Positions 16,381 to 17,513 of a DNA stretch of 35,944 nucleotides are shown here, piece by piece (within the stretch, counting starts at the first letter, position 1; every line of letters begins with the position of its first letter). Location: positions 1 through 35,944 of the forward strand of contig CAMDMI010000004.1 in assembly GCA_945902135.1 (NCBI GenBank), read 5' to 3'. The notes beneath the pieces are model-generated. The model searched no databases. It saw only the letters and a program-made list of their open reading frames with translations, and had not been told where the DNA came from. A program made the translations under genes and the position numbers. The stretch comes from Spirosoma fluviale. Lineage in GTDB: Bacteria; Bacteroidota; Bacteroidia; Cytophagales; Flexibacteraceae.

Positions 16381-16490
16381 TTTGGGCCTGTCCGTGCCTT
16401 TGGCGCGGTCGGGCTGTTTGTTTCAAGTCCTCGCCGCCACGGCGGCTTGCGGGCTTTTTACTTCCAACCCTCAGGCGAGATGCAGTGAAG
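16381..16490 (+). repeat. GC-rich dispersed-repeat-like sequence, left copy (A)
   Basis: Contains GCCGCC-AC-GGCGGC hairpin; 16453-16485 aligns at 28/33 positions in direct orientation with 17414-17446. Resembles dispersed Bacteroidetes intergenic repeats from memory. Confidence 0.6.
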
Positions 16491-16576
16491 GATTATGTAT
16501 CATTGGCATATGCAAAAGGATATTGTTAATGAAAAAATGCTAAAAACAACAGTATGCAGTTGCTAAACCAAACCCT

Positions 16577-16667
16577 ATAAAAAACGAAACCCGATAGCTT
16601 GAATTGCTTCAGGGGCTACCGGGAATAATATGGCGCAAATATAAATTGAAAAACAATATTTGACAAA
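16577..16667 (-). ncRNA. Candidate short minus-strand RNA: promoter -> hairpin -> U-tract
   Basis: Minus strand: TTTG (16664-16667), 20-nt spacer, TATATTTG (16636-16643), then CCCGGTAGC-CCC-TGAA-GCAA-TTCA-A-GCTATCGGG-TTTCGTTTTTT. The outer stem is fully paired only in the minus-strand RNA (G-U vs A-C mismatch on plus). The interval includes the promoter. Confidence 0.5.
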
Positions 16668-16679
16668 CGATTTGAAAAT

Positions 16680-17366
16680 ATGAAGTATCCTGACTTTGAA
16701 TTTGTGATGTCGCCCACACGTATGAACCGGTATCTGATGGCATCTGCAAATAAAACAAAGGGTGCTATGACCCTTTACCGCAAGAATTTAATGTTATCAC
16801 AAGAATTGTTTACTGTGATAAGTTGCTACGAAGTCGCCTTACGAAATGGAATTAATAGACAGTACTCTTCTCAAATAGGGAACGACTGGCTTAGAGATAC
16901 TGCTATATCTGGTGGTTTATTCGATACTCAAAATTGCAGACACACTAAAAATATTATAAACAAAGCGGTATCTAAACTAGGACATAATTATACCCATGCA
17001 AAAGTTTTGGCAATGATGGATTTTGGCTTTTGGAGATACCTTTTTGCTCAACCTCAATTTTATGCAGGTGGTCAATCGTTACTGAAGATTTTTCCAGCCA
17101 AGCCGTCAAGTACTCCAGCCATTCAATATAACCACACATTTGTATTTAACCAGTTAGGCCAAATAAATGACTTGCGAAACCGTATTGCTCACCATGAACC
17201 AATTTGTTTTGTTCCTGGTAAACCGATAAAAGACACTACATATGCCCGTCAGCATTACAATCTTATCTTGCAGTTGTTTCAATGGATGAGCGTAGATGAG
17301 TCAGCACTTTTGTACGGCCTAGATCATATTCTTACCATATGCAATGAGATAGATGCTTTACAGTAA
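16680..17366 (+). CDS. Abi family protein (Abi_2 / AbiD-AbiF-like, HEPN superfamily), putative phage-defence abortive infection protein
   Basis: LYRKNLMLSQELFTVISCYEVALRNGIN..., MMDFGFWRYLF, and INDLRNRIAHHEPI containing an Rx4H HEPN catalytic motif. Confidence 0.85.
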   Translation: MKYPDFEFVMSPTRMNRYLMASANKTKGAMTLYRKNLMLSQELFTVISCYEVALRNGINRQYSSQIGNDWLRDTAISGGLFDTQNCRHTKNIINKAVSKLGHNYTHAKVLAMMDFGFWRYLFAQPQFYAGGQSLLKIFPAKPSSTPAIQYNHTFVFNQLGQINDLRNRIAHHEPICFVPGKPIKDTTYARQHYNLILQLFQWMSVDESALLYGLDHILTICNEIDALQ

Positions 17367-17379
17367 GGAGGACTAGCCT

Positions 17380-17472
17380 ATGAAAGTATTAGCTAAGTTG
17401 CACTTCGATATGTGCTTTTCACTTCTATCCCTCAGGCGAGAAGTAGTTGAAAAGTCAATAAACTATAGATAG
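17380..17472 (+). CDS. Possible 30-aa ORF downstream of the Abi gene
   Basis: AAGGAGG (17365-17371), 8-nt spacing, ATG 17380, MKVLAKLHFDMCFSLLSLRREVVEKSINYR*; overlaps repeat copy B, so may be spurious. Confidence 0.2.
   Translation: MKVLAKLHFDMCFSLLSLRREVVEKSINYR
17414..17450 (+). repeat. Right copy (B) of the direct repeat bracketing the Abi gene
   Basis: gcttttcacttctatccctcaggcgagaagtagttga vs copy A gctttttacttccaaccctcaggcgagatgcagtga. Confidence 0.6.
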
Positions 17473-17513
17473 GTTCTGTTGTGCCCGGCCTAAATCCACT
17501 TTTGCCAAAACCA

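What the first reader, a model, noticed from the sequence alone, without database searches (positions are those of the whole stretch)
16381..17472. Cassette-like Abi_2/HEPN defence islet between convergent housekeeping genes, bracketed by a diverged direct repeat
An Abi_2-type gene with an Rx4H HEPN motif (RNRIAHH) sits alone between the 3' ends of the M1 peptidase (16378) and sufS (17514), where insertion breaks no promoter. It is flanked by direct repeats: 16453-16485 (gctttttacttccaaccctcaggcgagatgcag) and 17414-17446 (gcttttcacttctatccctcaggcgagaagtag) match at 28/33 positions by hand alignment. No transposase or recombinase is visible, so the islet may be a non-autonomous or homologous-recombination-driven defence cassette. 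The rest of the window is housekeeping.
Basis: partly seen in the sequence, partly recalled or inferred. Interest (0 to 1): 0.72.

Follow-up and report, generated by a model that had tools for sequence, protein, structure and literature searches.

The report
Abi_2 toxin gene with divergent RNA
A small, mobile phage-defence gene for a predicted RNA-cutting toxin always travels with a tiny RNA gene on the opposite DNA strand, which probably acts as its antidote; this pairing is widespread in Bacteroidota, has no Rfam entry, and is arranged differently from the known toxin-plus-RNA systems that are related to Cas13.

Summary
The gene and the repeats are as described, but the repeats are not the cassette. 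They belong to dispersed Flavo-1-like elements that sit between housekeeping genes elsewhere in this genome. The transferred unit is smaller: window 16572-17365, about 790 nt. A same-genus genome carries it on a different contig at 87% nt and 94% protein identity, although its sufS is only 69% identical.

The unit has two parts: the Abi_2/HEPN gene (16680-17366, +) and a conserved element 5' of it. In about 80 relatives that element is a roughly 50-60-nt RNA gene on the opposite strand. It has a sigma-ABfr promoter (TTTG-N19/20-TAnnTTTG), a 13-bp hairpin with a CCC/A internal loop, and a U-run. The hairpin is 98% paired with strong covariation. Wobble pairs occur 56:1 in favour of the minus strand. 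Nothing in Rfam 15 matches it.

The protein's only confident structural match is PbAbiF, solved as a dimer bound to an ncRNA. True AbiF relatives in the same phylum carry Rfam abiF RNA on the same strand as the gene; this clade does not.

Best reading: a type-III-like toxin plus RNA-antitoxin module, a new variant with a divergent, self-promoted RNA. The RNA gene and its strand are well supported. Toxin neutralisation by direct binding is inferred from AbiF and untested.

The parts
16680..17366 (+). Abi_2/AbiD/F-type HEPN gene, 228 aa, predicted RNase toxin
   Evidence: Pfam Abi_2 27.3 bits against cut-off 25.6; PADLOC PD-T4-5 38 bits, AbiD 22 bits; AlphaFold model pLDDT 95.4; Foldseek: 8vz6 PbAbiF-ncRNA, prob 1.00, TMq 0.67, the only hit with E <= 0.001
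17175..17201 (+). HEPN catalytic motif RNRIAHHEP (R166, H171)
   Evidence: R166 N167 R168 A170 H171 H172 E173 P174 invariant in 40 homologues of 52-94% identity
16574..16633 (-). ncRNA gene divergent from the Abi gene; exact ends inferred
   Evidence: model R1 81.3 bits, E = 8e-18 (this sequence is in the training set); only hit in this genome at E <= 0.001
16590..16623 (-). hairpin CCCGGUAGC-CCC-UGAA-GCAA-UUCA-A-GCUAUCGGG: 9-bp outer stem, CCC/A internal loop, 4-bp inner stem
   Evidence: MFE -16.7 kcal/mol, z -4.3; 98.1% of cells paired in 69 sequences, 7 pairs with double changes, covariation 0.293 against 0.119 shuffled
16579..16584 (-). U-run that follows hairpin and UUUCG: intrinsic-terminator-like 3' end
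   Evidence: UUUCGUUUUUU directly visible; T-run columns at least 90% conserved
16636..16667 (-). sigma-ABfr-type promoter of the ncRNA: TTTG-N20-TATATTTG
   Evidence: only exact match of TTTGN{19,21}TANNTTTG in the 36-kb window, although about one is expected by chance; conserved at this place in relatives: -7 at fixed offset in 53/71 loci, -33 TTTG at fixed spacing in 41/62
16572..17365 (.). horizontally shared unit (ncRNA plus gene)
   Evidence: exact extent of 87.4% nt identity with the same-genus genome locus L056 (= L070); the same -100 to stop-codon extent recurs in most pairs of relatives
16403..16481 (-).
   Evidence: RF01705 26.5 bits, E = 0.0074, below the gathering score 42; other copies in the genome
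   Evidence: 85% identical to 16453-16486; lies outside the shared unit

Best explanation
The locus is a two-component toxin plus RNA-antitoxin (abortive infection) module. The 228-aa Abi_2 HEPN protein is a predicted RNase toxin. A roughly 50-60-nt RNA is made from its own promoter on the opposite strand, starting between the hairpin and the Abi start codon and ending at the hairpin's U-run; it probably binds the HEPN protein and keeps it inactive. When the RNA falls, for example during phage takeover of transcription, the longer-lived protein would be released and cleave RNA. The two parts move together between bacteria as one block of about 790 nt. Shown: the gene, the conserved covarying RNA hairpin, its strand, its promoter and its linkage to the gene. 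Inferred: toxicity, neutralisation by direct RNA-protein binding, and release on infection.
For: Structure: 13 pairs, 98.1% of cells paired in 69 sequences, 84 cells with compensatory double changes against 19.7 shuffled, collapse when slid by one column. Strand: 56 G-U cells if the minus strand is the RNA, 1 if the plus strand is. Promoter: TAnnTTTG at one fixed offset on the minus strand in 53/71 loci, TTTG 23-24 nt upstream of it in 41/62 and TTG in 53/62; this is the sigma-ABfr consensus (PMC7366714). A betaproteobacterial copy has instead a 10/12 sigma-70 promoter at the same place and strand and the same fold. Linkage: the model hits upstream of abi on the opposite strand in 78 of the 80 genome-scan loci, including L120 (21 bits) and L109 (1.1 kb away because an IS sits between); the other two end at the contig edge; hits on held-out loci L066, L067, L068 score 36.7, 31.3 and 47.8 bits; no hit near more distant Abi_2 genes. 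Unit: homology between relatives runs from the RNA's U-run to the stop codon. Protein: only confident PDB fold match is PbAbiF bound to ncRNA. Decay: in one genus 4 of the Abi copies beside the RNA are frameshifted or carry stops while the RNA stays intact, and two loci have lost the gene but kept the RNA. Trans action: in L109 an IS with 13-nt inverted repeats and a 9-nt direct repeat separates an intact RNA gene from an intact Abi gene. By analogy AbiF of C. difficile is toxic and neutralised by direct RNA-protein interaction (PMC12373285).
Against: No expression, toxicity or binding data for this clade. The RNA lies opposite and close to the gene, so an antisense role is possible; in part of the family a plus-strand TAnnTTTG lies just upstream of the element (24/71 against about 6% background). 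The protein shares only 16% identity with PbAbiF over the structural alignment. In the genome samples 8 of 15 strong RNA copies have no Abi gene beside them, so the RNA can be separated from the toxin.
Confidence: 0.68

Rival explanations
1. Type-I-like control: the minus-strand RNA is an antisense RNA to the 5' leader of the Abi mRNA, or its transcription interferes with the Abi promoter. It then controls synthesis of the toxin and does not bind the protein.
For: The RNA lies opposite and directly upstream of the gene. Plus-strand TAnnTTTG is enriched just upstream of the element (24/71 against about 6%), so in part of the family the Abi mRNA would contain the full complement of the RNA. Antisense pairs of this layout are reported as putative type I systems in B. 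thetaiotaomicron (PMC7366714).
Against: Antisense pairing does not require a covarying hairpin with wobble pairs on one strand only and an invariant internal loop. In L109 an IS separates the two parts and both remain intact. The window has no plus-strand match of the full promoter pattern (one search found only the minus-strand one).
Confidence: 0.2
2. The RNA is a cofactor or sensor rather than an antitoxin: the HEPN protein needs it for activity or uses it to recognise phage RNA, as a forerunner of a Cas13-type guide.
For: AbiF is proposed as the ancestor of Cas13 and binds one ncRNA per monomer (PMC12737573, PMC12373285). The apical loop varies in length and sequence while the CCC/A core is fixed.
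Against: The loop is only about 3-10 nt and is nearly identical (GCAA) in many species, so there is no guide-like variability. Intact RNA beside broken Abi genes fits an antidote better than a cofactor.
Confidence: 0.07
3. The hairpin is not an RNA gene: it is a terminator, or a DNA hairpin that acts as the end of a mobile unit.
For: The shared block ends at the hairpin's A/T-run. Orphan hairpins of about 50 nt, 98-100% identical, sit at unrelated loci.
Against: Conserved -33/-7 promoter at fixed spacing on the minus strand, host-type promoter swap in Neisseria, conserved internal loop. No second end, recombinase or target-site duplication; one copy in this genome.
Confidence: 0.04
4. One reading: a non-autonomous or homologous-recombination-driven cassette bounded by the 16453/17414 direct repeats.
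For: The repeats are real and recur elsewhere in the genome.
Against: They are pieces of a dispersed Flavo-1-like element that elsewhere lies in housekeeping spacers. The DNA shared with G001 begins inside them. No Flavo-1 match at the other Abi loci scanned.
Confidence: 0.01

Closest known systems
AbiF / AbiFr and C. difficile AbiF-RCd22 (type-III-like RNA antitoxin; Rfam abiF RNA RF03085; PDB 8vz6)
   Same: Abi_2 HEPN protein with Rx4H motif and an adjacent small hairpin RNA with an asymmetric internal loop; the fold of our protein matches 8vz6.
   Different: Protein is 228 aa, against 297-300 for PbAbiF. Our RNA is on the opposite strand with its own promoter; RF03085 is on the same strand as abiF in phiC2 and beside the PbAbiF-like genes of G368 and G400. 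Our RNA does not match RF03085; its internal loop is CCC/A instead of A/CAAAUC.
PD-T4-5 (plasmid-borne distant AbiF/D relative, E. coli; abortive defence)
   Same: PADLOC PD-T4-5 profile matches 40 of 40 family members; PD-T4-5 defends by an Abi mechanism and was called TA-like (PMC9519451).
   Different: Only distantly related; the paper passages read describe no partner RNA. Proteobacterial Abi_2 relatives examined here have a different conserved upstream element.
ToxIN-type type III toxin-antitoxin systems
   Same: Proposed logic: RNA binds and holds an RNase toxin until infection (PMC5772629, abstract).
   Different: There the antitoxin RNA is co-transcribed with the toxin as a pseudoknot; here it is a plain hairpin, mostly single-copy, on the opposite strand.
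Flavo-1 RNA (RF01705)
   Different: It is a neighbour of the module, not part of it.

Membership tests
Abi_2 (AbiD/AbiF) HEPN family | Pfam Abi_2 profile above the curated cut-off | tested here: met
   27.3 against 25.6 bits
Abi_2 (AbiD/AbiF) HEPN family | HEPN Rx4-6H motif and all-helical fold | tested here: met
   RNRIAH invariant at R166 and H171 in 40 sequences; model matches 8vz6
Abi_2 (AbiD/AbiF) HEPN family | RNase activity, toxicity and phage defence | not testable with these tools
AbiF-abiF RNA (RF03085) system | RF03085 motif upstream of the gene | tested here: not met
   no RF03085 match up to E 5-10 in the window region or in 18 loci
AbiF-abiF RNA (RF03085) system | ncRNA on the same strand as the toxin | tested here: not met
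   wobble test 56:1 for the opposite strand, promoter on the opposite strand; controls phiC2, G368 and G400 are same-strand
Type III toxin-antitoxin | antitoxin RNA binds the toxin protein | not testable with these tools
   inferred from the fold match with PbAbiF-ncRNA only
Type III toxin-antitoxin | antitoxin RNA lies upstream in the toxin operon, read in the same direction | tested here: not met
   opposite strand
Type I toxin-antitoxin | RNA antisense to the toxin mRNA | tested here: inconclusive
   plus-strand promoter upstream of the element in about a third of loci, none clear in the window
Type I toxin-antitoxin | small hydrophobic toxin peptide | tested here: not met
   toxin is a 228-aa HEPN protein
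Repeat-bracketed mobile cassette | repeats coincide with the ends of the transferred DNA | tested here: not met
   shared block 16572-17365; repeats at 16453-16486 and 17414-17447
Flavo-1 RNA (for the repeat) | score above gathering threshold 42 | tested here: not met
   26.5 bits; a relative, not a confirmed member

The most novel reading that the evidence does not exclude
Partnering with a small structured RNA is the rule for Abi_2 proteins, with several unrelated RNAs: RF03085 on the same strand, this divergent hairpin, a roughly 140-nt proteobacterial element and perhaps c4-2. The divergent clade would be a distinct class of RNA antitoxin that can act both on the toxin protein and, being complementary to the toxin leader, on its mRNA.
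Probability: 0.3. Interest if true: 0.85.

Novelty: new variant of a known kind. Interest (0 to 1): 0.62.

Why it matters
AbiF-type proteins bound to small RNAs are the proposed ancestors of Cas13, but the described pairs use one RNA motif on the toxin's own strand. Here a second clade, spread across Bacteroidota and reaching Neisseria and MAGs labelled Acidobacteria, has a different, very compact RNA with its own promoter. If confirmed, it gives a minimal RNA-toxin pair of about 790 nt for structural and engineering work, a searchable RNA family absent from Rfam, and a test of whether RNA partnering came before or after the split of the Abi_2 clades. It also warns that defence genes called single-gene systems may lack half of the system in annotations.

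Tried and rejected
Repeats as cassette ends: rejected by the block boundaries and genome-wide dispersal. Empty-site test at pepM1-sufS: impossible, since no relative searched has that junction. Known Rfam RNA in the module: none. Plus strand as the functional RNA, although its internal loop has the short side 5' as in abiF RNA: rejected by wobble pairs, promoter and U-run. Viral origin: no homologue in IMG/VR by the pattern scan; phage records gave only hits of about 30% identity. Insertion of an RNA-bearing element into rhuM (L160): the other half of rhuM was not found in the 14 kb examined, so no conclusion. Sigma-70 scan for L155 and L072 gave nothing at the tool's threshold, so a promoter swap is claimed only for Neisseria. 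The full text of the PbAbiF structure paper is not in the library; its RNA was judged from secondary sources and from RF03085 beside PbAbiF-like genes.

Full report
OBSERVATION. The Abi_2 gene (16680-17366, +) and the 34-nt, 85% direct repeat (16453-16486 / 17414-17447) are present as stated. The left copy is the 3' half of an element at 16403-16481 that resembles Rfam Flavo-1 on the minus strand (26.5 bits, E 0.0074, below the gathering score). A 114-nt query found other copies in this genome (89% on C28, 79% on C54), and the Flavo-1 model has ten further matches at E <= 5e-4, one above the gathering score. They lie in spacers mostly beside housekeeping genes. The repeats are therefore dispersed intergenic elements and not a signature of this gene.

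THE REAL UNIT. The Abi protein has a 94% identical homologue in the same-genus genome G001, on contig C121; sufS of G001 is on C7, is only 69% identical and is followed by a TetR-type gene. The other three same-genus genomes lack the gene. DNA similarity between the two loci runs exactly from window 16572 to 17365: about 108 nt before the ATG to the stop codon, 87.4% identical, nothing outside. The same extent (about -100 to the stop codon) recurs in most pairs of relatives of 74-92% identity, for example a Chryseobacterium plasmid and a Belliella chromosome at 83%. The piece that moves is thus a non-coding stretch of about 100 nt plus the gene.

THE NON-CODING PART IS AN RNA GENE ON THE OTHER STRAND. 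A scan of 85,000 species genomes gave 80 loci with 50-94% protein identity, and plasmids gave more. Nearly all carry the same element upstream. On the minus strand it reads TTTG-N20-TAnnTTTG, about 10 nt, UUCCCGGUAGY-CCC-UGA-loop-UCA-A-RCUAUCGGG-UUUCGUUUUUU. In 69 aligned sequences 98.1% of pair cells are standard pairs, with 84 double-change cells against 19.7 in shuffles and a covariation score of 0.293 against 0.119; sliding the partner by one to three columns destroys the signal. Relatedness inflates such shuffle controls, but the slide control and the variety of pair types (G-C, A-U, C-G, U-A; G-U and U-G at one pair) are hard to explain otherwise. Of the non-Watson-Crick cells 56 are G-U if the minus strand is the RNA and 1 if the plus strand is. 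The -7 element lies at a fixed offset in 53 of 71 loci, and a -33 TTTG lies 23-24 nt further upstream in 41 of 62, TTG in 53 of 62. This is the sigma-ABfr consensus (PMC7366714). In the window the full promoter pattern occurs once, exactly here; about one match is expected by chance in 36 kb, so the weight comes from conservation and position. The Neisseria copy (40% identical protein) keeps the fold and has a sigma-70 promoter, TTGACG-N17-TATAGT, on the same strand at the same place.

LINKAGE AND SPECIFICITY. The covariance model R1 matches on the strand opposite to abi in 78 of the 80 genome-scan loci; the other two (L113, L133) end at the contig edge. L120 scores only 21 bits. In L109 the RNA is 1.1 kb away because an IS with 13-nt terminal inverted repeats and a 9-nt direct repeat sits between RNA promoter and gene. 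Most of these loci trained the model; held-out loci also match, including L066, L067 and L068 at 36.7, 31.3 and 47.8 bits. Abi_2 genes of about 25-35% identity have no R1 match. In 297 Bacteroidota genomes R1 found 11 strong copies and 12 in a genus of 65 genomes. Of the 15 distinct strong copies 7 have the Abi gene divergent and adjacent, 4 of them with a frameshift or stop, and 8 do not. Two of the latter are syntenic with an Abi-bearing locus from which about 820 nt covering the gene has gone while the RNA stays. Toxin decay with antitoxin retention is what a toxin-antitoxin pair predicts; the remaining orphans are unexplained.

PROTEIN. AlphaFold gives a confident all-helical model (pLDDT 95.4). 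The only PDB match at E <= 0.001 is 8vz6, PbAbiF dimer bound to ncRNA (prob 1.00, TMq 0.67, 16% identity). R166 and H171 are invariant in 40 homologues. PADLOC profiles PD-T4-5 and AbiD match all 40.

MECHANISM. AbiF of C. difficile is toxic and is neutralised by RCd22 through direct RNA-protein interaction; R202/H207 align with the R210/H215 pair whose mutation inactivates PbAbiF (PMC12373285). By homology and layout I infer that the RNA here holds the HEPN RNase inactive and that its loss, for example on phage infection, releases it. An antisense role is the main rival: in about a third of loci a plus-strand TAnnTTTG lies just upstream of the element (24/71 against about 6% background), so the Abi mRNA of those species would contain the complement of the RNA. 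The one-strand wobble signal, the fixed internal loop and the L109 arrangement favour a trans-acting structured RNA.

COMPARISON. Rfam abiF RNA (RF03085) is on the same strand as abiF in phage phiC2 and immediately upstream, same strand, of PbAbiF-like genes in G368 and G400. Our clade lacks it and has a different RNA on the other strand. It therefore works like AbiF-AbiFr but is not a member of that RNA family. I found no description of this RNA in Rfam 15 or in the papers searched; the primary PbAbiF paper could not be read, so prior mention there is not excluded.

Noticed in passing
L191 328-470, L192 328-470, L193 328-470, L069 1330-1470, L211 893-1025, L212 868-1005, L213 893-1030, L214 894-1030: Abi_2 genes on proteobacterial plasmids (Aeromonas, Klebsiella, Pseudomonas, Pantoea, E. 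coli) have a different, strongly conserved upstream element of about 140 nt with a GGCCCUG-UUAU-CAGGGCC hairpin and a terminator-like end; no Rfam match in L069, the one locus scanned; strand not decided.
   Followed up: partly
L059 1216-1291 (+): An Abi_2 gene of 27% identity has a c4-2 RNA (RF02944, 49 bits, above gathering) directly upstream.
   Followed up: no
L209 1501-1537; G400:C2:31194-31233: PbAbiF-like genes in Bacteroidota carry RF03085 abiF RNA on the same strand, directly upstream.
   Followed up: yes
L153, L154, L158, L160, L186, L188: Orphan copies of the ncRNA without an Abi gene, near a DNA methylase, an MNT-HEPN-like pair, or a truncated rhuM gene in a defence island; a core of about 50 nt is up to 100% identical to Abi-linked copies with no flanking similarity.
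   Followed up: partly
L072 and L075 (about 200 nt before abi); L093 1300-1359 and 1396-1455: Loci with two tandem copies of the hairpin (a second, partial copy visible in L072/L075; two model hits in L093), as C. difficile RCd22 has two abiF motifs.
   Followed up: no
L109 442-1493: IS with 13-nt inverted repeats and 9-nt direct repeat AAACAACAA inserted between the ncRNA promoter and the Abi start codon, leaving both parts intact.
   Followed up: yes
L017 754-1044; L015 669-947: Two of about ten Flavo-1 elements of this genome lie within 0.7 kb of a ParE toxin (L017, Pfam 35 bits) or a ParE-like ORF (L015, no Pfam hit).
   Followed up: no
window 17004-17027 / 17488-17511: 24-nt inverted repeat, 83% complementary, one arm inside the Abi gene and one next to the sufS end; may be chance.
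   Followed up: no
L064 158-1063: A Chryseobacterium plasmid carries a second, larger Abi family gene directly upstream of the RNA-Abi module; no Rfam abiF RNA found there.
   Followed up: no
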